Shown here piece after piece: positions 8,301 to 59,700 of a DNA stretch of 64,000 nucleotides (position 1 is its first letter; every line of letters begins with the position of its first letter). A model generated the notes under the pieces. The model had not been told where the DNA came from, ran no database searches, and was given only the letters and a program-made list of their open reading frames with translations. A program made the translations under genes and the position numbers. The DNA lies in assembly GCF_964355755.1 (NCBI RefSeq), contig NC_092680.1, forward strand, positions 313,001 through 377,000, given 5' to 3'. Source of the DNA: Antedon mediterranea (lineage: Eukaryota > Echinodermata > Crinoidea > Comatulida > Antedonidae).

Positions 8301-9111
8301 TTTGTAATATAGTGTTGTGTTGTTGAGGTACTGACTTGTAATGAAGACTCTTACTCGCTTAACTGTCGTAACACATATATTGTTTATTCAGTATAATATT
8401 TGATACGTGCGATAATAATGATACAGCTAACTAACTAAGGATAAGGAACGGAGGATCAGTGATGCTGTCGGTGAGATGTGAAGTGTGTAGGTCTGCTTCT
8501 GTAGAAGTGGCTGTAAGGTGTGTGCTCCGTGAGGTGGCTGTAAGGTGTAGATGTTCTTCTGAAGAAGTGGCTGTGAGGTGTGTCTGGGCTCTTCTGAAAC
8601 TTGGGGGTATATTGGCTTCGGTTCATTTGCATATGTTACTACGTCATCTGTGAGGGTAACGATTACTACTACTATTACTACTACTACTACTACTACTATT
8701 ACTACTACTATTACTACCACTACTACTACCACTACCACTACTACTACTACTACTACTACTATTACTACTACCACTACTATTACTACTACTATTACTACTA
8801 CTATTACTACTACTACTACTACTACTACTACCACTACCACTACTACTACCACTACTACCACTACTATTACTACTACTACTACTACTACTACCACTACTAC
8901 TACTACTACTACTACCACCACTACTACTACTACCACTACCACTACTATTACTACTACTACTACTACTACTATTACTACTACTACTACTACTACTACTACC
9001 ACTACCACTACTACTACCACTACTACCACTACTATTACTACTACTACTACTACTACTACTACCACTACTACTACTACTACTACTACCACCACTACTACTA
9101 CTACCACTACC

Positions 9112-9160
<49 letters not shown>

Positions 9161-15674: not shown

Positions 15675-16460
15675 CTGAAAGTAAATGTATACATCATTAA
15701 TTTTATTGAACTTGCTTGGACCCATGCAAAACACTGTGACCTCCTCTGTCGTCACATAAAAGATTAATAAATGAACAATTATTATTTTAAACCGTAAAAT
15801 GTATAATTGCAATTTATGTAAACGTCCCTGATTATCCCCAATACCAGTTTTAATGTTAAATATTAATGTTTAATGCTAATTTTCAATGTTAATTTGAATG
15901 TTAATCCTAATCACGCGCGAAATGCTGCTACGCACGCCCGTACGCACGTCGCATCATGTTCGTGTTGTGTCAACGCTTGCAACCAATTATGATTCTTCGT
16001 TGACAATTTATTACGAACAACATAGACAAAATTCGTTCCTAAAACAAAGCGACTATGATTCTTAATAATGCTATTGGTCTATATATCCTATATTTAGTTG
16101 CATCTTTGTATTTAGCCGCAATAATCAATGAATCTACAATCATATAATAAATTAAATTTTATTTTATCGTTTCTAAATTAGCATCTTAACAATCGGCTTA
16201 TATCTATATGTTTTATGATCCATTTTGATTAGCATTGCCCAGCAACGGTTACCATGGTAATCATTCTTTAAAGTCGTGTTTTACAATACCCTTTAACAAC
16301 TTGGTTCATACTAATCTTATTATAATTTTAGTAAGAAAAAAAAGTTTGTTATTGTAAACGTCAGTAGGTAAAAATGGCACTGTGAAAGATATTTAATTTC
16401 GTTTTTAAAGCTGTTTCAATTTTTCGATAAAATAAATTTTACAGAATAACGCATACAAAA
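15675..16460. promoter_or_regulatory. Upstream region of NCX, possible 5' exon or promoter
   Basis: Region just upstream of the first recognised NCX exon. 15910-15980 is locally CpG-rich (cacgcgcgaaatgctgctacgcacg...) in an AT-rich setting, which could mark a promoter. No signal-peptide exon or TATA box could be assigned. Confidence 0.25.
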
Positions 16461-27771: not shown

Positions 27772-31782
<4,011 letters not shown>

Positions 31783-36295: not shown

Positions 36296-36475
36296 TTACA
36301 TTTGGTTATTGCCGGCGCTGGCACCACTGAACATTCCAGAAGCCATACCACTTGCAGCTCCTTTAGCTGCTTCCTTGGTTGCGGTTTGAACGCCTGGGTT
36401 GGTCACGACACCTCGGGCGAACTCTTCTTGTGCTTTCTGGAAACTTGCACCGGTACTTCGGTACAAGGAGTGTAC
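36296..36475 (-). CDS. SCAMP: SCAMP last coding exon (cytosolic C-tail)
   Basis: Starts in phase 0 after cacag and encodes [20 protein letters not shown], then an Ala/Gly-rich tail ending GNNQM and TAA. The Y-R-(S/T)-T-G-A-S-F motif is a SCAMP hallmark. Any of the four upstream TM4 exons joins to it in frame. Confidence 0.93.
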
Positions 36476-39400
36476 CTGTGAATGGTCATTGAAAGAAATG
36501 TTATCAAAATATACTTTATTATTTCACAAAAAATATGATACTAAAAATTTGGTTCATACATTTTTTTTCTGTTTTTTTGCTCATTTTAAAATATAAATAT
36601 TTTTCTGTTAAAAAATGTTTTGTTCATGAGAATACTGCAACAATTTAAGGTAAATTTATTAAAATATCTATTTATCTTTTGCTTACATGCATTAATAGAG
36701 AATACTATTAAATGCACAATGAATTGATACAGTTTATCAATATTAATATACAGTGATATGAATGGTATGTTTTGGTGTTTTGTTATTGGATGAAAATTAA
36801 ACATGATTATAAAAGAAAATATGCAAATAAATTATTATTATAAGATTATTGTAAGCAAATATATGTTATTCAATTATTTAAATAATTGTATATAAAATAA
36901 AATATTGATAATTATATATTACATAATATGTATATATAATGTATTATTATACATTACATAATGTTATTTATAATGTATTATTTAAAATTGTAATTCAACA
37001 GATTATAAACAAAAAAGTAAAATTATTTTAAACATTTTGTTAAATTAAGTTAGAAAATAATGAGTTAAGAAATAAGCTTGTTTTTTGCAAAGCTTTTTAT
37101 CCAAAATATTGAATTAAATTTAAAATTCCACCACCATAAGAAAATTTAAGAAAACAAATCAACATACACATACAAACAAATCAGCACGTTCATAAGTTAT
37201 TTACCCGGGTTGACTTCATGAACGAATCATCGCTAACTTTGCTGGGTAGATCAGCAACTTACCCGGGTAGATCAGCAACTTACCCGGGTAGATCAGCAAC
37301 TTACTCGGGTAGATCACCAACTTACCCGGGTAGATCAGCAACTTACCCGGGTAGATCAGCAACTTACCCAGGTAGATCAGCAACTTACCCGGGTAGATCT
37401 CCAACTTACCCGGGTAGATCTCCAACTTACCCGGGTAGATCTCCAACTTACCCGGGTAGATCATTAACTTACCCGGGTAGATAACCAACTTACCTGGGTA
37501 GATAACCAACTTACCTGGGTAGATCACAGAATTACCTAGGTAGATCTCCAACTTACCCGGGTAGATCTCCAACTTACCCGGGTAGATCACCAACTTACCC
37601 GGGTAAATAACTAAGCATGAACGTGCCCATAGTACAGAGCACACATTATTTACAATACACAATCTGTAATTACACTGTATAAACACACATACAAATTACA
37701 AATACTATCACTACAGATCTCAGACACTAAACTGTTCTTACATTAAATACTCACTTCGTTCAATTTAAAAAAAAATCTAATAACAAGCAATTGCATTTTT
37801 ATTGCGATATTATTTTTATATTTTCCTAATTATTCATTTATTTATGAATTTTGTGGCAGAAGAAAATTATATTATATTTTGAATTTTAAATTGATTTATT
37901 TTGTTGTTATTTTTATTTATTATTTAATCAATCAATTTATTAAAAATTCGCATTAATTTGAATTCATTTAAATACAAACTTGTATCAATATTTATTTTTG
38001 TTGAAATGTTTAAGTTTAATTTCAAATTTTAAATAAGAGAATTAACTATATATCATCTGTATATACCAATTTGTTTTAGGATATTTAACTAGTTGTTGGA
38101 GACTTTCACTTTACCAATGCAATCTTTTGGTCATTTCCATACCTTTTTTAGAAATAATAGATTTAATGTAGCTAGTACAGTGAACAGGATTGCAACTATC
38201 ATCATGATTAAACCAGTGGATATGCGTTGAGCGTTGGACATGTCACCATCGGTGAACACTTCAATGGACACGATCCAACCGCTAATGACATTATACAGTG
38301 ACAGTACACACAATGAGTAGAAGATGAAGGGATGGAGGTAGTGAATATATGAAAAGAAAGCAGTAACATTAATAAAAGCAAAACGAAACAAAAAAGTGTT
38401 ACTAAAATGTTGTCATGATAACATATGATTTTTCTTGCTTTAAAAGCTCTTTTAAACTAAAATGTTTGACAAAACTAATAAATGTTATTTTATGTTATAT
38501 ACAGTTAACTCTTTTGTCCACCATATACAGCAGATTCTATAAGATGATGCTAAACTGAATATTATAAATTTTGGGAAAACGTGGAACGTTTTACAATTTT
38601 TTAAGTAGTTTATATCAGCTTCTGCTTTTACAGATTTTTTCGAGAGAAAGTGTTTAAGGTGATGTCATGAATAATATTGCCACACTACTACTTTTAAAAT
38701 TTAAAAAATTAGATGTTACCATGATCAACACTACTATAATACCTTTGTGCAATATTAAGCAAACTAAAAGAACTATATACAACTGTTAGAAGTTGTTAAA
38801 TAACATATTATTGGGACTGGGTTGCGTTTATACCTTCTTGATGAATAAAAGATTTAATGTAGCCAATGCGCTGAACAGTATAGCGACTGTCATCATGATA
38901 AAACCAACTGACAGACGTGAGCCTTTGCTAGATTCACTGTCCGTTAAAACTTTGATTGTTACTATCCAGCCACTAATATACATGATAAAAATTGTAAAAA
39001 AAAAACATTAAATATATTGGGTGTTTTAATTTTAAATTAAAAAAACAAACAAACAATAATGTATAGAAAAATTCATTTGATTTTGTTATCATGATGACCA
39101 AACCTGAAAATATGAAACGTAAATATTTTGGAACATAGCGTTTCATACGTATACTTGAGCTTGTTAACATCTATTAAAGTAAAGGTTCTCAAGTAATAGC
39201 CGATATAGAGACATAACGCTGTAAACATGGCGGCACAACAGATTGTTTTGCTTCTAATCAAATTCATCTTTCATTAAATAACAGACAATTTATGAATGAA
39301 AGTTAACAAATTTCTGAAATATAGTCAACTTGTCAAAAAAATTAATTAACAAAGCAAAAAAAAAATTTATTTGGTTTCTGTAAATCCCATTATATTCAGT

Positions 39401-42400
39401 TGGCAATGTATTTAAGCTAGGCTAAAAAAATGCAAGTTTAAACAACAAGATACAGTACAACAAAGTTTAGAAAAAACCATTGTACTTTTATTTACCCGTG
39501 TCTTAAATTATTATCATTTGACCTTAATACTAAGTTTTTTAAATAAATATTTTTAAGCATTAGTAGGTCCTTTCCTTTGCTGCTTAATTTTACTAACTGT
39601 AATATGTCATAACTGGATTTATAACTGCAGTTATGACAATTTTATAACATAATTGCCTTTAATATGCGTTGTTAAAGAGCAGCACGCACGCAAAACCTGA
39701 TTAATATTTTTCAGATGATTTCAAAATTAGTAAACATTCACCTACATGTAAAGTAATTTTTATTTTATTTTTTTATTAGCAAAAGAAAATAAGAGTGTTT
39801 TATTAAATACCTTCCTAATATAAAATAGTTTTAATATGGATAATGCAGTGAATAAAATGGCTACACACATCATCCACAAACCAACAAACGTTTGTCCACC
39901 TGATGAACTATTTGTCAACACATTCAGAGCTACAAACCAGCCACTGTCAAAGTTCAAAAACATTTTTTTAATAAAAATAACAAAATACTAAATTAATATA
40001 AAACTAAATGGAGGAATGACATTTGTAAAACCTAATTAAATCATTATTATTATTATTCTACTTCTTGAGGGCATGGTTCATAGATTATACAATTTATGGA
40101 GAGGGGTAGTCAATGCATTTTCTACTTTTTGAGTTATATCTCGCTCTCTGAGAGAGGCTACTGTTGGTTTATCCAGGTAAGCTAGACACAAAATAGTCAA
40201 TATTATTGGTTGAAAGATCATCACATGACCAAGTGTAGATTTATTAATTTCAAAGTTGGGCGCGTTGGACTAAATAGTGAATTTAGACTAGAATAGGAAA
40301 AGTATATTTATATAATAACAGTTCATCTAGTGATAAGAAAATGACCGATAAAAAATGAAAGCCAAAAAAATAAATAAATTATGGTAATACAGTTAAAGTC
40401 CAGAAAAATAAAAGATGATTGAAGTCAGCAAACTTCACTATGTTAACCTATATTTTCTTTGTGTAATTGTCTTATTTATGTATTGTCCTGTCATTGTCAT
40501 GTTTATATTGTCATTGTTCGTTTTATATGTATAAGTTTATTGCCTTAAAAACGCATTTTGAATTTTTCTCTCAATTTTTTGCATTATTTTATCTATTTAT
40601 CTCACCTTATATTCTTATGCAATTTGGAAATATATTGAAATGAACTATTTGGTATGTACACAGTTAAATTATATGAAACTCTGTGCTAGACGATGATTTA
40701 TTTTGACCTATAGATGATTTATTTTGTAAGAGGATTTATAAAAAAAATGTACTGAACATTAACGGATCGAATGAATGTTTAATACTCGCAGAAAATGCTT
40801 TATGAAATGTGTATGTTCAATTGTAAAAAGGAAAAAAATGAATATTTTATGGTGACTTAACAAAGGGCAACATCGACAGATAATGGTATGCATGGTTGCA
40901 CAATTAGAAGAAAATGCTTGTGTATATGTTGATAATTAGCTGGTGTTTGCTGTATTTGGAACAAAAGCTGACACTATGATGATAAACACTGATGGTTTAT
41001 TAAGATGACTTAGATCACCTTTTTGAGATACATAGCATCCAGTGTAGCCAGCAAGGACCAAACACCACCCATAAATAACATCAAACCGCCAACAACTTTT
41101 GCTCCAACACCGTCTTCTTTTACTACACGAATACCATTGATAAACCCGCTGCCAGAGTTAGAATATTGTATCAAAATATATTTGCATGATTCAATAAACA
41201 TAAAGGTAAAAGCACTATTGAGCGTTCAATAGTGCGTACTATTGCAAGCCATGTGACCAACAATAATCTAATTAAATGTCAGGAATTTATATAGGTGTTA
41301 TATAAAAGGTAATGTTGTATAAAAATATAAAAGATATTTGCATGATTCAAGATAACACCATCAATGCGATAAACTACTTGTTTTTTACCAGAACCAGTGT
41401 CACTGAGACTTAATTAAGTCTCTGGTGAAATTCATAAGAGATTTTGTAGGTACTAAATAATAATTGTTTGACACAAGAAAATGATGATACTGTAGGACCA
41501 ACAATTTGAAATGTTTGACAATAAAAAAAATAAATATAAAAAGGTCTAAATATTTGAGAGAAAATAATCAATGAAAAAATCAGAAATTTAGTAAGAATAC
41601 TTATGAGGAGCTACTGTGTGGAAAAAATGTAGTAAAATATATTTGACTCTGTAATAAAGTAAAAATATTAGGATACTTTAAATGCATAAGATATTTCAAA
41701 TACATATACCGTATTTATTTGAATAAACCCCCCGGGTTTCATTGGCTATTTGAAGGGGGAGTTTATTGCAAACGATGTTCTATGAAGGGCATTTTTTCGA
41801 GGAAAGTGTTTTTTTCAAATAAATACAGTATATAAACATTAACATTAACAACATGAAATAAAGATGTCATCACATATTTTATCAACAAACTAGACATTGC
41901 TGAATGAAATGTATCAATGTTGATATGGAACAACGCTGTGAATTCTCTGGAGTTGTATCAAAGAACTTATAACACAAGAATCTCCTGTTCTTCAATTTGC
42001 ATTCAAAACACAGTATCGGAAGTACAGGGTTAAAAGGTCAAACTGGGCGACGCCATTTCACAGCATGGAGCAGCGCCCCCTCCAAACTAGGAAGTTAATT
42101 ACTCTACCCCCCTAGAGTATTAGCAGATCCCCTCTATGATTTTGACTTTCTAATTTGATGCGGGCGCCCTACTCCTCAGTCAATTACTCTATCCCCCCTA
42201 GAGCATTAGCAGATCCCCTCTATGATTTTGACTTTCTAATTTGATGCGGGCGCCCTACTCCATGGCTCACAATGGCGGCACCCATAGCTCTATTCTATCC
42301 CACAATGCCTTTCGAAATTGTTACGCGCTTCGGACGAACAGGAGATTCTTGTGTTATAAGTTCTTTGGTTGTATGTAGATATTGCTTTATAATATTTAAA

Positions 42401-45400
42401 TAGTAAGCCTGTTGATTGGTCAAATATAAGCAATAAATAAACAAATCACTAAAACTTGTCATAAAATGATTTGACACATTACTATGTATCAGAAGTAAAA
42501 TGAGATACGTACCACGTGCCCCAACCATCTAATCCAATGGCCTGTACAACATTAGCACAAAATTGGCAGAAAAATACAAAGAAAAACATAAAGAAATTGA
42601 ACGAACTGTCACTCCTATAGAAAAAAAAAGACAAAATAAACATTAGAAATAAAAACCAACCATTAATAATAAATATATTAATATTAATAATACATACATA
42701 TATTACATTAATTAAATATTTTTCTATAACTTATCAAACTAGCATGAAACTTCTATCCAACTAAATTTAAAGTAAATATTTTTAAAAGTTGAAAGCATGG
42801 TAATTTGTTTTTTTTTAAATGTTCTTAGGCTAAATGTGGTAAAATTATGTAGAAATTTAAGTCTAATTCCGATTTTAAAACATGAATAAGTTTTCTCTAC
42901 ATTGGAATTAAAGTCTTAATATTGATTAAGATTCAAGTAATTGTATTGGTACACTTTAAAATGGAAATTCGGTCTGCTTTGCATAATTAAGACAATAAAA
43001 CAACAAAGAAAAATACATCAAATTGCAAAAGGCAAAGTTCATTTGTTGAACTTATGTCCTTTTTTAAGTTTAAAAAAAATATAATTTGTATAGCGCCTTT
43101 CCAAATTGATCAAGGTGCTTCACATTCTAATGCATAGGAAACAAGCAAGTTTTAAGGCCTTTCTTAAATAGATCTATCGATTTTAGTTCCCTTAATTCTA
43201 TTGACAGAGGGTTCCAGAAACTTGCTCTAAATTTGGAGAAAGCAATGTCCCCTGAGACACGCCTTTCAAGGTGGTCCTCTAACCTGGTTGGATCATTTTC
43301 CGACCTGAGACCACGCCTCCCACAATTATAGAGGTTAATCCTAAAGATAACCTGGTGCTCGGTTCAATTATTAAATCCAATAACACCGCCAACTTTTTTC
43401 TTTTTATTTTCTTAAGAAGATCATATGCATTTCAAAGTATAGTATTTTGATTCACTAATTTATGATGCAAGCTAATTTTAATCTTAAATTTTTAAAAGTA
43501 TTATTTTTATTTTATGAGAAAAATATTAATTTGGATGAAAATGATGAAATGATGCTTTACCTGAAGGCCTTGTACATAGGTCGATACCAACAAACGAATG
43601 AGCATGGACTGAACGCTACAAACCAGACTATTGCAAGACCAAATGTTGTCGCTTTACCTCCATCTGTTTTTGAAAATAGGTACGCCATGGCGCCGATCAA
43701 ATTCAAGAATAGGACTAATACATAAACTGAAATGAAATTCACGATATGAAATGCATTTAAAAATGGTATTATAAGCAAATGTGAATGGTATCACAATTAT
43801 GACGCGAAAAACTATGATAAAAAATGGTAGATGGCTTGATGAAGAAAGAAACAAACCATGACGTGTCGCTGCCTGCTCACCTAAAAGCTTTATACAAAGG
43901 CCTAAACCAACACACATAAGAACATGGATTAAAAAGTACACAGAAAAATACAGCCAGGCCAAAACATCGTCCACTATGACTGACTCCTGTACTGATGTAA
44001 CCAATAGATATCAGCACATTTATAAATAACAACACACCATAACCTGAAAGACGTCAATCATTTTATAATATACATACTTTATTTATTTATTAAGGTGAAA
44101 TCTACAAATTTTTCCCAACAGCCAGGTGCGGATCCAAGTGGAGCCCAGTCGGCCAGAGCCCCCCTAAATTTCACAAATTGTAATGCAAAGATAGGAAATC
44201 AAGCTCAGCCCTTCATTTCACCATTTTAGGCCCTGGGCCCCTCCTATTTCAAAATTCTGGATCCACCACTGACAGCAGAAATGAATCCTGCTAGAGAAGA
44301 GCAATACTAGAAATTCTAAAAATTAAATTAGTACCTGATTCAGAACGGCAGCACAAACAAACAATGAAAACAATGGCAAACGTGTTTGGGCTTTCTTTCA
44401 ATTAAATTTGCTAGACTGGATAGCTACCTAATAATTATTCATGAGGCTTTTTAATTTGCTTGTGGAATTCCTAAACACGTTCAAGTATAGGCTGTTTTCT
44501 AAACATGTTTTTGCCGTTGGGAATAATTTGTAGATCATGTCTAAATGAGAAAATGTTAAAGAATTTATTTACGTACCATTAGTGGCTAATTATTATTATA
44601 ACACACCTGATCACATGATATTCAATAAATATTCTATTGAACTCTAAATTACGTCAGAGTGCAATGTAACTACTTATATGTGACTACTGCAATTTTGTTT
44701 TGTGCATTCATTTTTGATATACCACATATGCAACATAAGGTTGGTGTTGACTGTAGTAGTGTTGTCGATGATATCGGAGGCCTGTATTTTCGAATAAGTA
44801 AATATATAATTCACGCAATTCATGAAATTATTTGTACCATTGCACTCATAAACATTTATTATTATGAGCTAGACCATATTGAATGTTTTAAACATTAAAT
44901 GTAACTTACACATCCACAAATAATATCCAGTTTTCACTGTACGCTGAAAGTCCAAAGGAATGTCTACTGAAAAATCTTGATAAAAGCAAGGCTGGATGTG
45001 TAACCATGACGGCAAAGGAGGCCAGTTGTTTTGTCGTGCTAAAAAATAAAGTATTTAATTAAGTATTATTATGAATGAAGGATGAGGTCTACAAGGAGTC
45101 AAAGAAAGATGTTCCTCCTCAATAACAACTCTTTTAAAGTAGTTGATTCTTTCATGTACACAAATGTTTAGAGATAAGGCAAAGATTTATTAATATCAAG
45201 AAATAATGCATAACAGGCCAGATGAGCAATGTGTGTCCAGTGGCAATATTCAACATTCAAGCGAAACATTTCTCCTAAATAAAAACGTATAAATAAACCT
45301 TGAATAATACAAAAAGAGATTTAGACTCAAACGTAAAACTAATACCATAAGATTAGCAGAGAATGTTAAATTCTCCTATCACGCTAAATGAGACTGTATA

Positions 45401-48400
45401 GTTTTAATGGTTCTAACTTACTATTATATTGAGCATTATTAATTTGTTGTTCTCTTCTTTGTAGTTCGGCTGCTTTGCGTTCTAATTCTTCTTGTCGTCG
45501 TATTAAGTCTTCATGTCCAGCTTGCACTGCCTATACAGTAGGGCAAACAAATAAAACACAAATTACATGGGTCAGACCAGGTCATATTTAGTGGGATGCC
45601 AAAGGTAAATAAAACACAAATTACATGGGTGAGACCAGGTCATACTTAGTGGGATGCCAAAGGTAAATAATCTATTCCTTTTTGTCCTATTCTTTACATG
45701 TACATTCTCAGCCAGGGAATGTGTATTAAGCTCTGCCTACACTATCAAACTAGTTTGACAAAAAAGTGTGATGTGCCCAAATATAGTAGTGATATGATAT
45801 CATCATGTCATATATGGGTACATCACATTTTGTTGTCACATAAATTTTGACTGTAAACAAAGCTTTACATTACAGATATTATTTGACACGCAAGAAATTA
45901 GAGTGAACAATATAGAAGCAACTTACTGGTTGTGCAGCTGATTGTGTGTAAGCAGGTGGTGGTCCTGTGGGTGGTAACACTGCAGGTTGGGGTTCAGACT
46001 TTGTAGGAGGTGCTGTCTGTCTATATGGTTGCTGTACATTAAAAAACAAAAAAGGAAAGTAAATCATTTAAATTATCTCATCATCTTATATTGTAGCTAG
46101 GGAAGTCAATGAAACATGCTTAAGCACAATGAAACATGCTTAAGCACAATGAAACATGCTTAAGCACAATGAAACATGCTTAAGCACAATGACTTCAATG
46201 GAAGGGCAACCTGCCTCCTTTGCTATGTAAATTATCTTTACTTTACTAATTTGCTGATTCACGAAGCAATCAAGACACAATTATTAAATAAACACATTGG
46301 TTTTCTTGAATCGTAACATTTCTTTAAAGATATGGATTCTTATGTCTTATACTGTACAGTAGGATAAATTTAACAAATGACCTCTCCTTTTAAATCTTAT
46401 TAAATGTAGATTACAAATATTAATACACAAATATTTTTTTATATGTTTTTTTTGGCTTTATTTGTGACGCAGAGCCTTATGTGTAGTGTTGTGAAGTCAA
46501 AAACAAAAATGCATAGGGTTTTAGCATTTGTACAATATAAGGAATACAAAATTATATACAGTACTGTACAGTATTTTTTAATTTTTTTTATTTTATTTTG
46601 ATATTTTGTATATGTTTTTCATATTTTTCTAATAATAATAATAATAATATGTGCACATACAGATTGTTTATTTGAATCTTCAAAAGGGTTATATTCTTCA
46701 AGACCTCTATGGCTGTTACTAGTTGCTTGTTGAACTGACTGATCCTGCAAGACAAATATAATCAGCAAGTTTAAAAATAATGCTTCCTGTTTCCTTACAC
46801 AAGTGTAGTGTACATTATGTTGAAGAGGATCCAGGAATTATGAATGAAGGATGTGGTAAAAACAATATATTTGTGCGAGAGGCACCACCTTCCCCAACCC
46901 CTGCTGGATCCGTTCCTGTGGATTGATGTTCATCTAGACCACCATGCTTATTTGTGCGAGGGGCACCACCTTCCCCAACCTTTGCTGGATCCGTTCCTGT
47001 TGATTGATGTTCATCTAGACCAGCATGCTTATTTGTGCAGTACACAGTACATAGCATTTTTTTACTTTTTATTCATGTATACAAAAAATTAATTTAAATA
47101 CAATGTATATTTGGCATCTGAAAAAACTGTAAATTGCACTTTAAACTGTAAAGACGACAGACTGACTGTAATGCATAGATACAGGATAAGAAACATTATA
47201 TACATCTGCATCAGATATGATTCAGAGTGCTTAAATTGTAAGGGTTATCCGTCGCCGTTATTACGTTGCTGACGACGGATGAAAGCTGTTCATCGGCTTT
47301 TATCAAACCTCTTGGGATGTAAACATAATGAAGATAGTTTGCCGGAAAATGAATTAGCTACTTTTTTACAAATGTCATGCTAGTATTATATTTTAACACA
47401 TTGAGGCATGTTAAACATAACTGTATACAATTATTGTGTAAATACTGTACTGTGTACTACAGTACAGTTGGATTAGAAGATGTTGTGACATCTTTAGTGC
47501 ATAGGAAAATCTACCCAATGAGTTCAATAAAACAAGAACCAAAAAGCTCACAAATTTTGTATAATAAATCGTAAAAAAAATTTTAAATTTTGATTTTTTT
47601 ATTCTTTCTTTAGCCTCTCTGGATTATTAAGTGTTTCTTCAAATAAGCATGCGTTTATATTATATATATTGATAAGAAAGCACATACCATTGAACAGCCA
47701 GTACAGTGAAATCCACAATTAGAATGCTATAAGCCTTTTAGATAATACTTAACAGATACATATGCAACACACGGTCCTGCATCTATACTATTAAAAGTGT
47801 CACTAATGTAAAGAACGAATCCTGAATCATTGACGCTTTTCCAAAATACTGTTTAGCCTAATAATCTCATTGGCTTTTAATTCTGAACTTTACCTCCTAT
47901 TTGATTAACTCCCACACCATATGGCTGTTGTATGGCTATGATAACAGCCGGAAAACCTATTCAATTTTGTAACAGAAAAACAAATACTTCATGTGTATAG
48001 TAAACATATAGCATCAAGTTATCACCCAAAAGTTTGATTTTGAGTTAATATGAGTGTGACTGTTTTTTGTATTGGTTTGGTGATAGAGGAGCACTTGTGA
48101 GTCCATGGAGACTTTACAACTAAGGTATGAGTAAATATCAAATTGCAATATTCCATTGTGAATGATGGGTACATGTACTCATAGAATGCCATAGTGAACA
48201 TTATCTGTGGTTATTAGAAATTATATGTTCATTAAATACAGTTGTAGCTAGTAGGTACAATTATATTTTATTATTTCATTTAGCAAACAATTTGCAAAGT
48301 TTTTAAAAGTCAAATAGTTTTAGTTTCTTTACCTCAATCAACAATTTTCAGTTGTTGTCTAACAACTTAGTCTGTTTGGTCAAAGCAGCATGACTAGAGA

Positions 48401-54400: not shown

Positions 54401-56307
54401 ATATTATACACACTCATAATAAAGACTACCAGAGGAATACGCTAAAGGCAAATTTACACAGACGAGTGGTAACGGTATCCATAGCTAGTCCCACGTACAA
54501 TCTGTATCTGTCCTGAGCAAAACCACCCGTCCGCTTCATGTTGTGTGTAAATGGTCATAACATAGATTCTATATTTTTACTATTGTTACGGCTCGTATGT
54601 GTAAATTGGTCATTCTTCATTATACTATCAATTACATACTCAGAAATGATATTTCATCCAAACATCTTACTGTTACAGAAAGAAAATACTGCAAATTTTC
54701 CTACAAGCTTTTCTAGTTGCTCGAGTAGTTCCAAATTACAGCCAATGCAAAGCGTTGGTGATGACAACACCACATGGAAAATCACCTCCGTCCAATAGTA
54801 AACAAGTAACTACTGTACAGTACCTGCCTCAACCCAAATGTTTTAAATTATTTTTTCCGTTATCAAATCTGGCTTATTAAGTATTTTATTAAAGGCAGTT
54901 TATACAGTATTTTTGTTCTATAAACTGCATTATTTTATTTGGTTTTGCGTTAACCTCATGCGAAGAGAGAAGATCAGCTACTGTATTATTTTATTTGGTT
55001 TTGCGTTAACCTCATGCGAAGAGAGAAGATCAGCTACTGTATTATTTTATTTGGTTTTGCGTTAACCTCATGCGAAGAGAGAAGATCAGCTACTGTATTA
55101 TTTTATTTGGTTTTGCGTTAACCTCATGCGAAGAGAAAAGATCAGCTACTGTATTATTTTATTTGGTTTTGCGTTAACCTCATGCGAAGAGAAAAGATCA
55201 GCTACTGTATTATTTTATTTGGTTTTGCGTTAACCTCATGCGAAGAGAAAAGATCAGCTACTGTATTATTTTATTTGGTTTTGCGTTAACCTCATGCGAA
55301 GAGAAAAGATCAGCTACTGTATTATTTTATTTGGTTTTGCGTTAACCTCATGCGAAGAGAAAAGATCAGCTACTGTATTATTATTTCCACCGAAAATATC
55401 TGTGTTTACCATTATTTTTAAAGGGAAATTGATATTATAATGTTAACATTATACCATTGAGGTACTTTAAAACAAATTTTTTTGTCGTCAACAGCTGGTA
55501 CAAATGCACAAAATGGACACATATCGAAGAATGATATCACTACAGTAGCTTAAATTCTTATTGTTAGATGTTAACAAATCAGTTAAATGCTAAAAAAGGT
55601 TTTATAAAAGGATACTTACGAAAGATATTAATGAGAAAAAAACACAATAGCACACTGTTTTAAATACATTTTTTATTTTTTCAGATTTACAATTTTTAAC
55701 ATTTAGAAAAAAATATTGATGACAGAAATAACCAGTCCTGGGCATACATATGTACACATTATTCAATAAAATAATTTTAATACATAACAGAACATAATAT
55801 ATTATTTATATTCTATGCAGCATGCAATTCAAAACATTAAACAATCATTCAAAAGGGTTTCGAGGAGCCACTAACTGACTAAAGAGAGCTAAACCGATTA
55901 TGCAATATTGGTAATCAAACTAATTTTTAAGTTGAGAAACATAGTTTTGTATTGTATTTTTTGCTACACAATTTTCAAAATGTGTAGCAATAAGGTTGTT
56001 TTGTATAGCTCTTTTCTATGCTACACTGGTGAAAATGTTCCCTGACTGAACTGTCATAAACAATCGTAATACAGTAACCACTGTTTATCAATCAGGATGC
56101 CGTTCATCACAGAAACACGTATGTGAGTGAGTGGGTAGGCATGCCTGCGAACCTAACCTAGCTAGCTAGCTACACACAGACTCAGTCAGTACATACAGTA
56201 GGCCTAGGAAATTGGCATGATTAAACCATCAAATAAAACCAATACTTTACCTGAAACGGATTAGATTCTTGTGGGTCAGCAAATGGATTACTATCAAAGT
56301 CAGCCAT
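36296..56307 (-). CDS. SCAMP: Secretory carrier-associated membrane protein (SCAMP)
   Basis: Four-pass membrane protein of recycling and secretory vesicles. Minus-strand exons: 56251-56307 ([15 protein letters not shown]...NPFQ), 51383-51409 (27-nt, tentative), 46661-46744 (YNPFEDS), 45927-46031 (proline-rich), 45422-45530 (coiled coil, [17 protein letters not shown]), 44910-45038 ([16 protein letters not shown], start of TM1), one of 43881-44043 or 43561-43726 (TM1-TM2, E peptide), 42513-42614 ([10 protein letters not shown]3), one of 41019-41148, 39811-39943, 38834-38972 or 38143-38281 (GW.., TM4), and 36296-36475 ([19 protein letters not shown], stop). Junction phases agree at every step. 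The product is about 365 residues, against roughly 340 for vertebrate SCAMP1. NPF motifs bind EH-domain endocytic proteins and the E peptide acts in exocytosis in mammalian SCAMP2 (family knowledge). The tandem alternative exons are the striking feature. Confidence 0.95.
37235..37612. repeat. 21-bp minisatellite, about 18 copies, in last SCAMP intron
   Basis: Unit acttacccgggtagatcagca with variants atctcca, ataacca and atcacca. Every unit carries a CCCGGG-type palindrome and an 'acttac' word that on the minus strand reads gtaagt, a perfect splice-donor consensus. The 21-bp period produces open frames on both strands (IYPGKL and TYPGRSA repeats), judged artefacts. Confidence 0.95.
38143..38281 (-). 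CDS. SCAMP: SCAMP alternative TM4 exon, version 4 (3'-most)
   Basis: 139 bp, acceptor cattag, donor gtatgg; one leading base, then 46 codons. Encodes [12 protein letters not shown].. followed by [20 protein letters not shown] and LFLKK. Homologous to the 38834, 39811 and 41019 exons, and to the segment between TM3 and the C-tail of vertebrate SCAMPs (GWI....IMM..AALFT). Confidence 0.9.
38834..38972 (-). CDS. SCAMP: SCAMP alternative TM4 exon, version 3
   Basis: 139 bp, acceptor tattag, donor gtataa. Encodes [12 protein letters not shown].. then [20 protein letters not shown] and LFIKK. Closest relative is the 38143 version, with which it shares length and most TM4 residues, indicating a recent duplication. 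Confidence 0.9.
39811..39943 (-). CDS. SCAMP: SCAMP alternative TM4 exon, version 2
   Basis: 133 bp, acceptor gacag, donor gtattt. Encodes [16 protein letters not shown].. then [20 protein letters not shown] and FYIRK. Same leading phase (one base) and end phase (0) as the other versions. Confidence 0.9.
41019..41148 (-). CDS. SCAMP: SCAMP alternative TM4 exon, version 1 (5'-most, most divergent)
   Basis: 130 bp, acceptor ctggcag, donor gtgatc. Encodes [13 protein letters not shown].. then [20 protein letters not shown] and AMYLKK. Lacks the Trp of the GW motif and the IMM..AILF core of the other three, but keeps phase, position and the LLATL..LKK end. Confidence 0.85.
41704..41836. mobile_element. 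Short TIR element (ataccgtatttatttgaa ends)
   Basis: Left atataccgtatttatttgaataaac and right ttcaaataaatacagtatat are inverted repeats around ~90 bp. Related pieces (gaataaacccc, cgaataaac) occur near 3420-3590 and 5580-5640 without clear ends. Confidence 0.7.
41959..42367. mobile_element. MITE with perfect 32-bp TIRs and 7-bp target duplication
   Basis: Left end caaagaacttataacacaag (41959) continues to 41990 and is matched base for base, inverted, by 42336-42367. Directly flanking both ends is gttgtat (41952-41958, 42368-42374). The interior has an 84-bp GC-rich direct duplication at 42098-42262. Perfect TIRs and target site suggest recent insertion. It lies between the TM3 exon and the first alternative TM4 exon of SCAMP. 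Confidence 0.93.
42513..42614 (-). CDS. SCAMP: SCAMP constitutive TM3 exon
   Basis: 102 bp; acceptor ctatag, donor gtacgt. Encodes [19 protein letters not shown] then [11 protein letters not shown]. Ends with two bases (TG) that combine with the first base (C or T) of any TM4 version to give Cys, as in the NWGNCGW-type junction of vertebrate SCAMP1. Confidence 0.92.
43078..43335 (-). mobile_element. Non-LTR retrotransposon (LINE) 3' end with reverse-transcriptase tail
   Basis: On the minus strand an open frame ending at the TAG at 43127-43129 reads [18 protein letters not shown], then [20 protein letters not shown], then [17 protein letters not shown]. This matches the typical C-terminal end of LINE ORF2 proteins (F..R....WN.LP..LR...S...FK..L). 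It is followed by a short 3' UTR ending in ggcgctatacaaattatattttttt, a common LINE/SINE tail. 5'-truncated, so inactive. In the SCAMP intron between the TM3 exon and the E-peptide exons. Confidence 0.8.
43561..43726 (-). CDS. SCAMP: SCAMP alternative TM1-TM2/E-peptide exon, version B
   Basis: 166 bp, acceptor tttcag, donor gtaaag; two leading bases, 54 codons, two trailing bases. Encodes [35 protein letters not shown] and the E peptide [11 protein letters not shown]. This version is closer to the vertebrate sequence ([14 protein letters not shown]). Confidence 0.92.
43881..44043 (-). CDS. SCAMP: SCAMP alternative TM1-TM2/E-peptide exon, version A
   Basis: 163 bp, acceptor tttcag, donor gtgagc; same phases as 43561-43726. 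Encodes [40 protein letters not shown] and the E peptide [11 protein letters not shown]. No stop or frameshift across 53 codons, and strong conservation around [11 protein letters not shown] argues that it is functional. Confidence 0.9.
44123..44271. mobile_element. Short TIR element in SCAMP intron
   Basis: Left caggtgcggatcca and right tggatccaccactg are imperfect inverted repeats, with acagc on both flanks. 149 bp, internally rich in ggcccc. Confidence 0.6.
44910..45038 (-). CDS. SCAMP: SCAMP constitutive exon before TM1
   Basis: 129 bp. Encodes [18 protein letters not shown], then [20 protein letters not shown] and M. This is the conserved amphipathic region that precedes TM1 in SCAMPs. 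Ends with one base, T, compatible with both downstream alternatives (Phe with version B, Cys with version A). Confidence 0.92.
45422..45530 (-). CDS. SCAMP: SCAMP coiled-coil exon
   Basis: 109 bp, phase 0 start. Encodes [20 protein letters not shown] then [16 protein letters not shown], the N-terminal coiled coil of SCAMPs. Confidence 0.92.
45549..45664. repeat. 58-bp direct repeat, 2 copies
   Basis: Unit aaataaaacacaaattacatgggt(c/g)agaccaggtcatatttagtgggatgccaaaggt. Confidence 0.88.
45728..45866. mobile_element. MITE, 'aaagctctgtctacac' family
   Basis: Left aagctctgcctacactatcaaac; right end decayed (ttttgactgtaaacaaagcttt). Ends 61 bp before the 3' end of SCAMP exon 45927-46031. Confidence 0.8.
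45927..46031 (-). CDS. SCAMP: SCAMP proline-rich exon
   Basis: 105 bp, phase 0 at both ends, acceptor gtacag, donor gtaagt. Encodes [20 protein letters not shown] then [15 protein letters not shown]. The PPPAY stretch could bind WW domains. Confidence 0.9.
46109..46190. repeat. 20-bp tandem repeat (tgaaacatgcttaagcacaa), 4 copies
   Basis: Perfect units in a SCAMP intron; each contains the palindrome gcttaagc. Confidence 0.92.
46661..46744 (-). CDS. SCAMP: SCAMP exon with central NPF motif
   Basis: 84 bp, phase 0 at both ends, acceptor ttgcag, donor gtatgt. Encodes [20 protein letters not shown] then [10 protein letters not shown]-(D/E)-E-Y-N-P-F is shared with vertebrate SCAMPs. Confidence 0.9.
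46866..47035. repeat. 81-bp direct repeat, 2 copies
   Basis: Unit atttgtgcgaggggcaccaccttccccaacc..gatgttcatctagaccagcatgctt. Open frames on both strands repeat with the unit (81 is a multiple of 3) and are judged spurious. Confidence 0.88.
48527..48791. mobile_element. TIR element, about 265 bp
   Basis: aatagtcagctttcgggacagta at left; tactgtcccgatgcgaaagctgacta at right, an inverted repeat with a small indel. GC-richer than the surroundings. Confidence 0.75.
49237..49336. repeat. 48-bp direct repeat, 2 copies
   Basis: Unit acaatactagcatttaatgacattttatgttatatccatggtggcctt, perfect. Confidence 0.9.
49622..49642 (-). CDS. SCAMP: Candidate alternative first exon of SCAMP (MDFNPEK)
   Basis: An ATG followed by seven codons encodes MDFNPEK and ends at a donor gtaaaa, phase 0, so it would splice in frame to the NPF exon at 46744. 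It resembles the canonical start (MADFDSNPF) and would make a protein without the first NPF repeats. No promoter evidence, and a 21-nt match could be chance. Confidence 0.35.
50132..50338. repeat. 69-bp tandem repeat, 3 copies
   Basis: Unit gtaaagaagagcatagctaacaaccaactattacacaattcag.taataatatactgattgactggGT. Ends about 40 bp before the ATG at 50377. Confidence 0.9.
50377..50598 (+). CDS. Orphan coding exon, antisense within SCAMP intron
   Basis: ATG then 74 codons ([18 protein letters not shown]..., ...[24 protein letters not shown]) ending at a donor gtaatt in phase 0. Composition is hydrophilic and balanced, unlike the low-complexity frames around it. I do not recognise the family. The next plus-strand acceptor I can fit in phase 0 is tttttatag at 56777, directly before the AP3B start codon; joining there keeps the AP3B frame (adding DYDD before its ATG). 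So it may be an alternative 5' exon of AP3B, or the first exon of an unrelated nested gene whose other exons I could not find. Confidence 0.45.
50638..50884. mobile_element. TIR element, 247 bp
   Basis: Left taccatatatcctcgggt and right cagaggatatacacggta are inverted repeats. The interior has repeated cgggtataatccc words. The minus-strand frame across it is an artefact. Confidence 0.75.
50969..51140 (+). repeat. Dispersed repeat, family also at 31327
   Basis: catcagcggcataatggctataagcgctcactggctaaacacaggggcc, equivalent to the reverse complement of the 31327 copy. Confidence 0.6.
51383..51409 (-). CDS. SCAMP: Candidate 27-nt SCAMP microexon
   Basis: catt..gcag between tttcag and gtattt encodes HSPPVDSVQ, phase 0 at both ends, between exon 56251-56307 and exon 46661-46744. 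Both inclusion and skipping keep the frame, so it may be optional. Confidence 0.5.
51466..53190. mobile_element. Nonautonomous TIR element, about 1.7 kb
   Basis: A perfect 15-bp inverted repeat, ctacgctcgcgctaa (51469-51483) and ttagcgcgagcgtag (53170-53184), with subterminal gcgaa/ttcgcc palindromes (ttcgccaaaatggcgaa left; ttcgccaatttggcgaa right). The interior is unusually GC-rich at 52540-53040 and has no transposase frame. Interior pieces recur at 54855-55470. Confidence 0.75.
53660..53910. repeat. ~79-bp tandem repeat, 3 copies
   Basis: Unit cacacagtacaataacaaggagttacagtatacgcatattgcagataactaataatacagaaaaaaaaataaagataatg. Confidence 0.9.
54444..54556. mobile_element. Possible short TIR element
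   Basis: gcaaatttacacagacgagtgg and ccacccgtccgcttcatgttgtgtgtaaatgg are partial inverted repeats. Confidence 0.35.
54855..55470. repeat. 57-bp minisatellite (about 8 copies) inside a relative of the 51466 element
   Basis: Unit ctgtattattttatttggttttgcgttaacctcatgcgaagagaaaagatcagcta, 54930-55385. The flanks (tatcaaatctggcttatt..; aatatctgtgtttaccatt; ttaacattataccattgaggta) match 52100-52240 and 52690-52715 of the 1.7-kb element, so the array grew inside a copy of that family. Confidence 0.8.
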
Positions 56308-56777
56308 GGCTTAAAATAGTTGATTTGAAGATGTTTTCTGATCAGAAATCAAAGATTTTACCTAAATGTTCGTTGATGATGGCATAAACCACAAACTGAG
56401 TTTGCGTAATGACCGCCGATAATGACCCACACGTGAGAATTATGTCATTATAAGTAATAAATCGGTTTTCAATATTCTTTATTAAGAACATTTTAAGTCA
56501 GTTTGAAAATAATATACAAATCAAATAAATATAAAAATATGATTCTAACACTATAAATGTTTTTTTAGTAAGAGTTTGTATCCAGTAAATATAATACTAT
56601 TTTTACCTAAACGGTGAAAGGTCATACTGAATGACATAGGGAGGCCTAAGCTAGATAAAAGAACACAGAATTCCCGTGAAATTGGTAAGGCACTCCCAAA
56701 TTTGTATTAAGAGATGGTTAGAATTAATAATTTTGTGTGCGATTAATTAAATATGATAATATAATTCGTTTTTATAG
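56308..56777. promoter_or_regulatory. Bidirectional promoter region between SCAMP and AP3B
   Basis: The two start codons (56307 minus, 56790 plus) are 482 bp apart, head to head. An E-box cacgtg lies at about 56431. A donor-like ttg|gtaagg at 56684-56685 and an acceptor tttttatag at 56777 suggest a short noncoding AP3B first exon ending near 56684 with a 93-bp intron. No TATA box is clear. Confidence 0.5.
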
Positions 56778-56789
56778 GACTACGACGAC

Positions 56790-59700
56790 ATGACGTCCAG
56801 TAGTAGTATGGTGTCTTACGCCAACGAACGTCCACATCACTTGGTGGGCGGTAACAGTAGTGGCGGTGGTGGTGGTGGAGGTTCGACAGGTGATGCGGAT
56901 GAGGCTAGCGATCCAGCTCGTGGAGGCTTCTTTGCAGCAGATTATAAAAAGTATAATAATATCACCATGATCGATTGTATTTTGTTACCTTGGATATTTA
57001 ATTTTATGTTGATTAATTTTCATAATTTATATTAATAATACTAAACTAAATAATTAATATTTTGTTATTAATAAATAAAAGATCAGTCAGAATAAAGAAT
57101 GAGAACGCATCATTAATTATTCATCATGTTTCGTCCCAATTTAGGCCAATAACAAATTCTTGTTTATGGGGTTGGGTGCGTGGGTTGGGATGCATTGTCA
57201 TAATAGGAAATGTAAAGCCATCAGCAACCACCTCAAACTTGATATGTATATGTGTAATTAACCGTAAAAATAAGGCATTAGAGACGCATGATAATGATTG
57301 CAATATTTATTTTTTTTAGCCAGTTTTTTTTTTCTATAAAAAGATCTCAATTAATATCAAATTTAGTAATTCTATTTTATTGTAAGATGTTTTCTTATAT
57401 CACATATTTTTTGTTTTTGTTCAGTAATGTTGGTTTTGGACCAATAAAACAAAATAAATAACAATATTATGTTTTTCTAATTGTTAGTTTAATTGTTATT
57501 TTTAGACATGAAGATCTTAAGTCAATGCTTGATAGTAACAAAGATGGGTTAAAGCTGGAAGCAATGAAACGTATCATTGGAGTAAGTACTAACAAAACGT
57601 TAGTTATACTGCATGTTTGCTTTCATCATTCCTCATATTATTTTTTTATTGAGTAATAATAATTAATTTGAACATACTTTTGTAACAGTGGCACACTTCG
57701 ATATGAAGGTTCATTGTACAATCAAAACCACATTACAATGCTAACTATAAAATGTACAACAATAATAATAAAAATGTAATAATAATAATGAAAACCAAAC
57801 AGTACCCCCCCCCCCCCCGATATTTATCGATATTTACCCACCCCCTCCCTCCCAGTATTGTTTGAGATAGAGTGGTCAATTAGGTCAAAAGTCATGTATG
57901 AATGGCTTTACACTCTACCAGCTATTCAAGTATCAACTTATTCCACCATATCAAAATAATAATATAATAATGTATAATAACAAAGGTTGGTGAGGGTGAC
58001 CATCACTACTACTGTAGGATTTTATCAGAAAATATTGAGCCATTTTTATTACATAATAATATTGTTTAAAGGTTTGCATAGTGAATAAACACTATCAATG
58101 AAGTATAAGAAATAGTTAAATTGTATTCTTTACATTAAAATAACAAATTGACAAGTCCTTTTCAAATGATACAGACACTCAGCATTGTGTCATCAGTATT
58201 GTATGCTAAAACACCCTAACTCTATCAGTGTGAACAGGGCTTTAATGCTATTATACTAATTGAATAGTAGGGCCTTTACCCTTAAGCTAGAAGATTATGT
58301 GACAAAAAAGTGTGATGTGCCCATATGGTAGTGATGTGCCCAAGTTTGTTTAGTGATATGACACTATCATGTCCATATATGGGCATATAATCTTTTTGTC
58401 AAATGATCTTGATAGTGTAGACAGAGCTTAATACCAATTGAAGAGTATATTGTTAGATATAATCAATATCTTTCAGATAATGTACAGAGCTATTCAATTA
58501 CATGGTTGATTGAATCTGTGCAGATGTAGGTTTACATACACTGAGTTGCACTGTGAATAGAATTAAAACTACTTTGATTTAATTTATAATAATACTGTAT
58601 TGGATTGTTCCACAGTGTAATAGTAGCAGTAACCTCATTAGCATAAACTGCCAGGTTAATTAGCATAATCCATAGCTTTAATTTAACACTAAACTTGCTT
58701 TTTGCCTTTAATTATAATGATAACATTAATCTATATTATTTTTTGCACTGAAGCTCTGCAATATTTTGTGACTGTTTTATTTGTCATTTTGATTTAGCTT
58801 TTTGCTTATTTTATTTGTATTTTCATTGAGATCCAGCCACTGATATATTAACATTAAATCATAACATCAATTGTTGGGTTTTTTTCAGATGATTGCTAAA
58901 GGCAAAGATGCATCTGATTTATTCGCTGCAGTTGTAAAAAATGTTGTCTCTAAAAATATTGAGGTAAAAGTAACCATAATAATAAATTTGTGTTTTTCAT
59001 ACTGTAAAGGCAAAAATGTTCGCACCTCCGTCATTTTCCTTATGCGTATGTAGAATGTAAAAATAATTTGATCTTTATTTAATCTTTTTTCAGATTAAAA
59101 AGTTGGTTTATGTTTATCTTGTACGTTATGCTGAAGAACAGCAGGACCTTGCTCTGCTATCAATTAGTACATTCCAAAAAGCACTCAAGGTAATTCGATC
59201 ATTTTTCTACCAAATATAAAGTTAAAACCTCCTGATAAGCATGTTTTCTTGTGACAATTATCCTTAGCAATAGGTCTAAAATAGAATAATAATGAAAATT
59301 AATGTAAGTGAGAAAATAACCTGCAATTGCTCACAGGTGTGGACGACAATCAGGATAATAACTATAAAATTTTAGGCGCTATCGTGCGGACAAACAAAGA
59401 AAGTACTTGTTTGTAATATTAATTGCTATCCACAATACAATACATTATGATTTGAAATTACCAAAATCATACAGAAACTAAATAATTATAACTGTATACT
59501 TTCTGTGTATATACAGGATCCAAACCAGTTTATTCGAGCATCAGCTCTACGAGTTTTGTCTTCGATTCGAGTAACCATCATCATTCCAATCATGATGCTT
59601 GCGTTAAAAGACAGCGTGACAGACATGTCGCCATATGTGAGAAAGACGGCCGCGCATGCCATCCCGAAAATGTACAGCCTGGATCCAGAACAAAGAGATC

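What the first reader, a model, noticed from the sequence alone, without database searches (positions are those of the whole stretch)
38143..41148. Tandem array of four alternative TM4 exons in one SCAMP gene
Seen: four exon-like units on the minus strand (139, 139, 133, 130 bp), each with AG/GT borders, one leading base and a phase-0 end, encoding homologous versions of the 3/4 loop and TM4. Each joins correctly to the TM3 exon (42513) and the C-tail exon (36475). All lengths are 1 mod 3, so using none or two breaks the frame; exactly one must be chosen. I know of no described SCAMP with such an array. Inference: mutually exclusive splicing tunes the fourth membrane span of a vesicle protein.
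Basis: partly seen in the sequence, partly recalled or inferred. Interest (0 to 1): 0.92.

Follow-up and report, generated by a model that had tools for sequence, protein, structure and literature searches.

The report
Feather-star SCAMP gene, two swappable-exon arrays
The one SCAMP (vesicle membrane protein) gene found in this feather star carries four interchangeable exons for its fourth membrane helix and two for its first two helices, a system whose counterparts appear in annotated isoforms of sea urchins, lancelets, molluscs and scorpions but which our paper searches did not find described.

Summary
Observation confirmed: four homologous TM4 exons at the stated coordinates (130, 133, 139, 139 bp), all 1 mod 3, with AG/GT borders and matching phases. 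The window is from the feather star Antedon mediterranea: the model E1-E5, E6b, E7, U4, E9 equals its NCBI isoform X1 letter for letter. So 2 x 4 = 8 full-length proteins are possible; the 28 tested combinations with none or several members of an array truncate. All eight score 198-222 bits to Pfam SCAMP (172 without TM4). No second SCAMP gene was found in the 354-Mb genome. NCBI isoform pairs in seven other species of four phyla differ only in the TM4 segment; three animals swap only the E6 segment, two oysters only TM3. TM4 exons fall roughly into a non-W type (U1) and a W type (U2-U4). Mutually exclusive splicing is well supported. Antedon RNA reads, the mechanism of choice and the functional effect were not tested. 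Whether the two TM4 types arose once, before the protostome-deuterostome split, is undecided.

The parts
56251..56307 (-). Exon 1, start codon, [19 protein letters not shown] (NPF motifs)
   Evidence: tblastn of the N-terminus of P0001; GT donor, phase 0
46661..46744 (-). Exon 2
   Evidence: AG/GT borders, phases fit
45927..46031 (-). Exon 3, proline-rich part
45422..45530 (-). Exon 4, charged helix of the N-terminal tail
44910..45038 (-). Exon 5, NNWPPLP motif to the start of TM1
43881..44043 (-). Exon 6a (163 bp, 1 mod 3): alternative rest of TM1, 1/2 loop, TM2 and E peptide ([11 protein letters not shown])
   Evidence: tblastn with E6b, 45% identity, E 4e-13; frame and borders
43561..43726 (-). 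Exon 6b (166 bp, 1 mod 3): rest of TM1, 1/2 loop, TM2 and E peptide ([11 protein letters not shown]); used in NCBI isoform X1
   Evidence: identical to P0001
42513..42614 (-). Exon 7: TM3; no second copy seen in the window
   Evidence: tblastn over the window
41019..41148 (-). TM4 exon U1 (130 bp), non-W type (CGFINGI...)
   Evidence: groups with non-W exons of six other deuterostomes (95/86), a long-branched nemertean row also inside
39811..39943 (-). TM4 exon U2 (133 bp), W type
   Evidence: crinoid W clade 97/95
38834..38972 (-). TM4 exon U3 (139 bp), W type
   Evidence: crinoid W clade 97/95
38143..38281 (-). TM4 exon U4 (139 bp), W type; used in NCBI isoform X1
   Evidence: identical to P0001; the only TM4 exon with G at donor +5 (read)
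36299..36475 (-). Last coding exon, cytosolic C-tail; the stop codon follows
37244..37605 (.). 21-bp x 17.2 minisatellite in the U4-E9 intron; 16 matches (up to 2 mismatches) to a 14-base core carrying a donor-like GTAAGT in the transcribed direction (possible decoy donors)
   Evidence: role not tested

Best explanation
This is a single SCAMP gene of the feather star Antedon mediterranea with two arrays of mutually exclusive exons. The first array (2 members) supplies most of TM1's hydrophobic stretch, the luminal 1/2 loop, TM2 and the E peptide. The second (4 members) supplies the luminal 3/4 loop and TM4. One member of each is spliced in, so up to eight proteins share cytosolic tails and TM3 but differ in three membrane helices and both luminal loops. 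Shown: anatomy, frames, homology, one complete annotated isoform, and the same swaps in annotated isoforms of other animals. Inferred: (a) exactly one member is used in each mRNA; wrong combinations shift the frame or meet a stop and should be removed by nonsense-mediated decay; (b) choice is regulated, since U1-U3 have weaker-looking donors (no G at +5) than U4; (c) the swaps change lateral contacts in the membrane (cargo, lipid or partner SCAMPs) while the tails stay constant; this single gene may do by splicing part of what five SCAMP genes do in mammals. Likelihood, my judgement: mutually exclusive use about 0.9; contact tuning about 0.5.
For: Model equals P0001 (A. mediterranea isoform X1) letter for letter, and 28 of 28 none-or-several combinations truncate. 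All eight E5-E9 chains match Pfam SCAMP over the whole profile at 198-222 bits, against 172 without TM4. Differences between copies are enriched at third codon positions: U3/U4 26 of 44 (p 0.0004), U2/U3 27 of 53 (p 0.006), E6a/E6b 33 of 71 (p 0.015), U1/U4 32 of 70 (p 0.021), U2/U4 25 of 53 (p 0.025); U1/U2 and U1/U3 not significant (p 0.15 each); the comparisons share copies and are uncorrected. Isoform pairs of one species with 100% (rounded) identity outside the named segment: TM4 only, 5 of 33 pairs (Diadema, Apostichopus, Branchiostoma floridae, Octopus, Saccostrea echinata) and 2 of 7 (Centruroides vittatus, Limulus); E6 only, 3 of 33 (Apostichopus, B. belcheri, B. floridae); TM3 only, 2 of 33 (S. 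echinata, Ostrea edulis); two segments at once, 3 of 33. No second SCAMP gene.
Against: No RNA reads could be examined; only one of the four members of the NCBI cluster P0001 could be read. No Antedon isoform with E6a plus a non-U4 exon is among the 120 proteins listed. NCBI isoforms are partly predictions. Three predictions hold several TM4 segments in one protein: Nucella and Mya and Nymphon; I read them as gene-model errors, but taken literally they contradict exclusivity. No convincing docking/selector RNA structure was found. Of 33 + 7 isoform pairs, 25 do not show a clean segment swap: N-terminal or C-terminal differences, paralogues, different species, or no difference in these segments. 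The introns between the copies (154-1075 bp) give no obvious steric reason for exclusivity.
Confidence: 0.87

Rival explanations
1. Only U4 and E6b are used; the other copies are unexpressed duplicates that still look intact.
For: The only Antedon isoform I could read is E6b + U4. U1-U3 have weaker-looking donors.
Against: Six of six alternative units keep frame, phase and splice borders. Copies differ mostly at third codon positions in five of seven comparisons. U1 groups with exons that are present in NCBI isoforms of urchins, lancelet and sea cucumber, 95/86 in a 61-row tree, though the group splits in the 76-row tree.
Confidence: 0.07
2. The copies are alternative but not exclusive, for example combined in a longer protein or used as poison exons that lower expression through frameshift and decay.
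For: Predictions with several TM4 segments in Nucella and Mya and Nymphon; none-or-several use truncates, as a decay switch would.
Against: Each copy encodes a full 3/4 loop and TM4 with a SCAMP-like score, which a poison exon does not need. Of 56 proteins held only on short contigs, 0 contain two TM4 segments. Two TM4 spans would put the C-tail on the other side of the membrane (inference).
Confidence: 0.05
3. The arrays arose independently in each lineage, so the likeness between phyla is convergence rather than an inherited switch.
For: In the 61-row tree mollusc non-W exons lie among mollusc W exons; keeping all mollusc or all chelicerate exons together is not rejected (AU p 0.36 and 0.29). 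The E6 tree is largely unresolved, with lineage-specific pairs in lancelets and sea cucumbers.
Against: One origin of the non-W type is not rejected either (p 0.17, 0.23, 0.37). Same segment borders in the isoform pairs, and the same non-W-then-W order in Antedon and the two fused predictions in which it can be read, Nucella and Mya. A purely crinoid origin of U1 is close to rejection (p 0.056).
Confidence: 0.42

Closest known systems
Muscle myosin heavy chain mutually exclusive exon clusters (PMC3912159, passages read, several of them from the abstract)
   Same: Arthropods have one gene with exon clusters; a cluster is dated there to the bilaterian ancestor; clusters were lost in vertebrates and nematodes, and some lineages have many genes instead.
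   Different: Motor-domain segments rather than membrane helices; studied with gene structures of 116 animals, whereas here only protein isoforms and one genome were available.
Mutually exclusive exons as defined for prediction (Pillmann et al. 2011, PMC3228551, abstract read)
   Same: Neighbouring exons of similar length, same reading frame, conserved splice sites and homologous sequence; met by both arrays.
   Different: Exclusive use in transcripts not observed here; the words SCAMP and secretory carrier do not occur in that paper's main text.
Vertebrate SCAMP genes
   Same: Same four-helix core, NPF tail and E peptide; TM4 is of the W type in 39 of 39 named vertebrate proteins among the hits (36 sorted by script, 3 read by eye). 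By name these are SCAMP1-3 or unnumbered; no SCAMP4 or 5 was among them.
   Different: Diversity comes from separate genes; mammals have five, Drosophila one (PMC4235465, passages read).
Synaptogyrin, a tetraspan vesicle protein (8a6m; PMC10352133, passages read)

Membership tests
SCAMP family (PF04144) | Match to the SCAMP domain over its full length | tested here: met
   8 of 8 isoforms 198-222 bits, profile 1-172 of 172, cut-off 27
SCAMP family (PF04144) | E peptide between TM2 and TM3 with conserved C and W (PMC8721997, passages) | tested here: met
   [11 protein letters not shown] in E6b, [11 protein letters not shown] in E6a
SCAMP family (PF04144) | NPF motifs in the cytosolic N-terminal tail | tested here: met
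   SNPFADP, SNPF and YNPFED in exons 1 and 2
SCAMP family (PF04144) | Four membrane helices | tested here: met
   Predicted model of P0001: helices 147-178, 186-218, 221-243 and a long one from 267 (mean pLDDT 69.5, blocks of residues 151-300 at 80-97); prediction only
Mutually exclusive exon cluster | Adjacent homologous exons of similar length, same phase, conserved splice sites | tested here: met
   Lengths 130-139 and 163/166, same phases, AG/GT
Mutually exclusive exon cluster | Exactly one member in each mature transcript | tested here: inconclusive
   One Antedon isoform seen; isoform swaps in other species; three predictions with several TM4 segments against; no reads
Docking-selector RNA structure control (as in Dscam) | One docking site complementary to a selector near every member | tested here: inconclusive
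   Best of four scans reached by 8 of 60 shuffles, the others by 44, 58 and 60 of 60; TM4 array only; no second crinoid genome to test conservation

The most novel reading that the evidence does not exclude
SCAMP carried a two-way TM4 switch (non-W and W exon) in the common ancestor of protostomes and deuterostomes. It is still in use in echinoderms, lancelets, molluscs and chelicerates, expanded to four members in crinoids, joined by TM1-2 arrays in deuterostomes and a TM3 array in oysters, and reduced to the W exon in vertebrates, where gene duplication took over the diversity.
Probability: 0.48. Interest if true: 0.74.

Novelty: new member of a known kind. Interest (0 to 1): 0.62.

Why it matters
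Most SCAMP functions known to me are assigned to the cytosolic tails and the E peptide; what the membrane helices and luminal loops do is hardly known. A natural set of swaps that leaves the cytosolic tails untouched is a ready-made tool for that question. It also gives a testable case of splicing variety in one gene standing where vertebrates have several genes.

Tried and rejected
Exon 1 was first set at 49642. It is wrong: the real one is at 56307-56251. The proteins and the query bear the wrong first seven residues, as do the eight reference isoforms aligned; the segment counts there do not use exon 1.

A second SCAMP gene was sought: the only hit off this locus (C4, E 0.02) lies in a stretch with a run of phenylalanines and was dismissed. 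One search's family search found only this gene. These searches scored 11 and 10 candidates.

An acidic residue in TM4 as a mark of the non-W type was tried. mis-sorted rows because of an alignment shift; one search corrected it (46 of 95 non-W against 7 of 89 W distinct segments; 16 rows unclassified). It is a tendency, not a mark, and related rows inflate it.

The RNA docking search by duplex energies timed out; a simpler helix scan showed nothing convincing.

No solved SCAMP structure by sequence. Foldseek gave no match at E 0.001 or better; VIA-align rows are in the range of generic helical bundles.

The E6 tree is largely unresolved. TM4 trees have only 44-45 columns; five long or unsure rows were dropped before (P0019, P0061, P0155b, P0095, P0021); one of them, P0061, is the Octopus W exon of a clean pair, and P0019 is a sea-cucumber non-W exon that did not join the others. 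Short chelicerate exons without W were labelled W type by eye before the tree. In one search the deuterostome non-W exons no longer form one group.

Nymphon was first counted as a third fused prediction with non-W before W; on rereading its second segment lacks its start and shows no W, so its type cannot be read.

Paper searches aimed at SCAMP with mutually exclusive or duplicated exons: 20 of 306 listed; 0; 20 of 112; 1; 20 of 62; 0; none of the listed titles and abstract starts describes such exons (open-access PMC only).
Full report
What is there. The minus strand of the window holds one complete SCAMP gene, from the start codon at 56307 to the stop just below 36299. The spliced model E1-E5, E6b, E7, U4, E9 is identical to P0001, annotated by NCBI as SCAMP1-like isoform X1 of Antedon mediterranea, which names the organism. 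In the window's genome (354 Mb, 18 contigs) a Pfam SCAMP search found this gene only. A protein search found this gene plus one weak, low-complexity hit.

The TM4 array. They encode the 3/4 loop and TM4. U3 and U4 are 64-65% identical, U2 43-52% to them by tblastn; U1 shares 24-36% with the others in global alignment. Every unit raises the Pfam score over a TM4-deleted control: by 41.5 (U1), 42.4 (U2), 44.6 (U3) and 49.7 bits (U4) on the E6b background.

A second array. E6a (44043-43881) and E6b (43726-43561) encode alternative versions of most of TM1's hydrophobic stretch, the luminal loop, TM2 and the E peptide, 45% identical, both 1 mod 3. A predicted model of P0001 puts the helices at 147-178, 186-218, 221-243 and from 267 on. 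By exon lengths E6b covers residues 162-217 and U4 251-297. The two arrays thus replace about half of the TM1 helix (the greater part of its hydrophobic stretch), TM2, TM4 and both luminal loops, and leave TM3 and the cytosolic tails constant. No further copies of these exons were found in the window by tblastn.

Why exactly one. In one search, 4 choices for E6 (a, b, both, none) were combined with 8 choices for TM4 (none, U1, U4, and five sets of two to four units). Only the 4 combinations with one E6 and one TM4 exon gave the full protein; the other 28 were truncated. U2 and U3 as single choices were built (with the wrong exon 1) and, and stay open to the C-terminus. Steric closeness is unlikely to be the reason, since the introns between copies are 154-1075 bp. 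Donors: U1 GTGATC, U2 GTATTT and U3 GTATAA lack G at +5, U4 GTATGG has it; this fits U4 as default, by inference. No convincing docking-selector pairing was found.

Are the extra copies maintained? Differences between copies are enriched at third codon positions in five of seven comparisons, as expected if both encode useful protein; U1/U2 and U1/U3 are not significant. U1 falls with non-W TM4 exons of brittle star, starfish, two urchins, sea cucumber and lancelet at 95/86 in the 61-row tree; a long-branched nemertean row (Lineus) is in the same group, and another sea-cucumber non-W exon (P0019) is not. In the 76-row tree this group splits.

Other animals. Three protein searches, each listing the best 120 of over 2,000 hits, gave 223 different proteins. 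I compared 33 pairs in 19 groups and 7 in 5 groups. Pairs with 100% (rounded) identity outside the swapped segment: TM4 alone in Diadema antillarum, Apostichopus japonicus, Branchiostoma floridae, Octopus bimaculoides, Saccostrea echinata, Centruroides vittatus and Limulus polyphemus (15-38% identity within the segment); E6 alone in Apostichopus, B. belcheri and B. floridae; TM3 alone in S. echinata and Ostrea edulis; and 3 pairs with two segments changed. The remaining 25 of the 40 pairs are not clean swaps: N-terminal variants, paralogues, one pair from two Lytechinus species, near misses such as Procambarus (C-tail 88%), or no difference in these segments. In lancelet and sea cucumber the same E6 occurs with different TM4 exons and the reverse, so the two choices can be combined. 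Three gene predictions hold several TM4 segments in a row. In Nucella (P0069) and Mya (P0155) the non-W one comes first and W ones follow, as in Antedon; in Nymphon (P0172) the second segment lacks its start and its type cannot be read. Of 56 proteins known only from short contigs (up to 4.7 kb), which I take to be transcripts, 22 have W and 34 another residue at the marking position, none has two TM4 segments.

Age. A single origin of all non-W exons is not rejected (p 0.17, 0.23 and 0.37). Nor is keeping all mollusc or all chelicerate exons together (p 0.36, 0.29). With 44-45 columns the tree cannot decide. All 39 named vertebrate proteins that I picked from the list have W (three of them read by eye); no SCAMP4 or 5 was among them.

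What it probably does. SCAMP tails and the E peptide carry known functions (PMC8721997, PMC10316736 and PMC4235465, passages read). The arrays keep the tails and vary the membrane and luminal parts (and in E6 also a few residues of the E peptide), so I infer that they tune which membrane partners or lipids the protein meets. This is not tested. The comparison with muscle myosin (PMC3912159, passages) suggests that one gene with exon arrays and several genes without them are alternative routes to the same variety.

Literature. Searches listed no paper whose title or abstract start describes such exons in SCAMP; three of them list only the best 20. Of listed papers holding both SCAMP or SCAMP1 and the phrase on mutually exclusive exons, one is a C9orf72 transcriptome paper (listing only) and one a splicing review that names SCAMP1 only in a reference title (passages). 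Subscription papers were not searched, and NCBI's automatic isoforms already contain the raw facts.

Noticed in passing
window 37244-37605: A 21-bp minisatellite (17 copies) in the intron just after the TM4 array. Sixteen matches (up to 2 mismatches) to its ACCCGGGTAAGTTG core carry a donor-like GTAAGT in the transcribed direction, stronger-looking than the donors of the TM4 exons. In the whole genome the 19-base unit with up to one mismatch gave 13 matches here and 1 elsewhere (that search skips very common words). Possibly a decoy-donor array.
   Followed up: partly
window 41960-42365 (about): The E7-U1 intron holds a stretch with inverted ends (agaatctcctgttc / gaacaggagattct) and an 86-bp tandem duplication inside, like a small transposon insertion.
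   Followed up: no
window 56307-56790: SCAMP starts about 480 bp from, and head to head with, an ORF that may open an adaptin gene on the + strand (Adaptin_N matches in four ORFs between 59505 and 63796; by my reading an AP-3 beta subunit): possibly a shared promoter of two trafficking genes.
   Followed up: partly
P0057, P0113, P0114, P0115, P0122-P0127, P0129, P0133: Oysters show two versions of the TM3 segment as well (endings such as TGYT and TDFT), 62-69% identical, so in predicted isoforms every SCAMP membrane helix is exchangeable in some animal.
   Followed up: partly
window 8427-9798: Long simple-repeat stretch open in several frames (poly-T, poly-S, poly-V, poly-Y readings); hardly a gene.
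   Followed up: no
window 27820-31782 and 14895-15812: ORFs with repeated C2HC zinc fingers on + (zf-C2HC_2, six stretches in 27820-29316) and a sodium/calcium exchanger match on -.
   Followed up: partly
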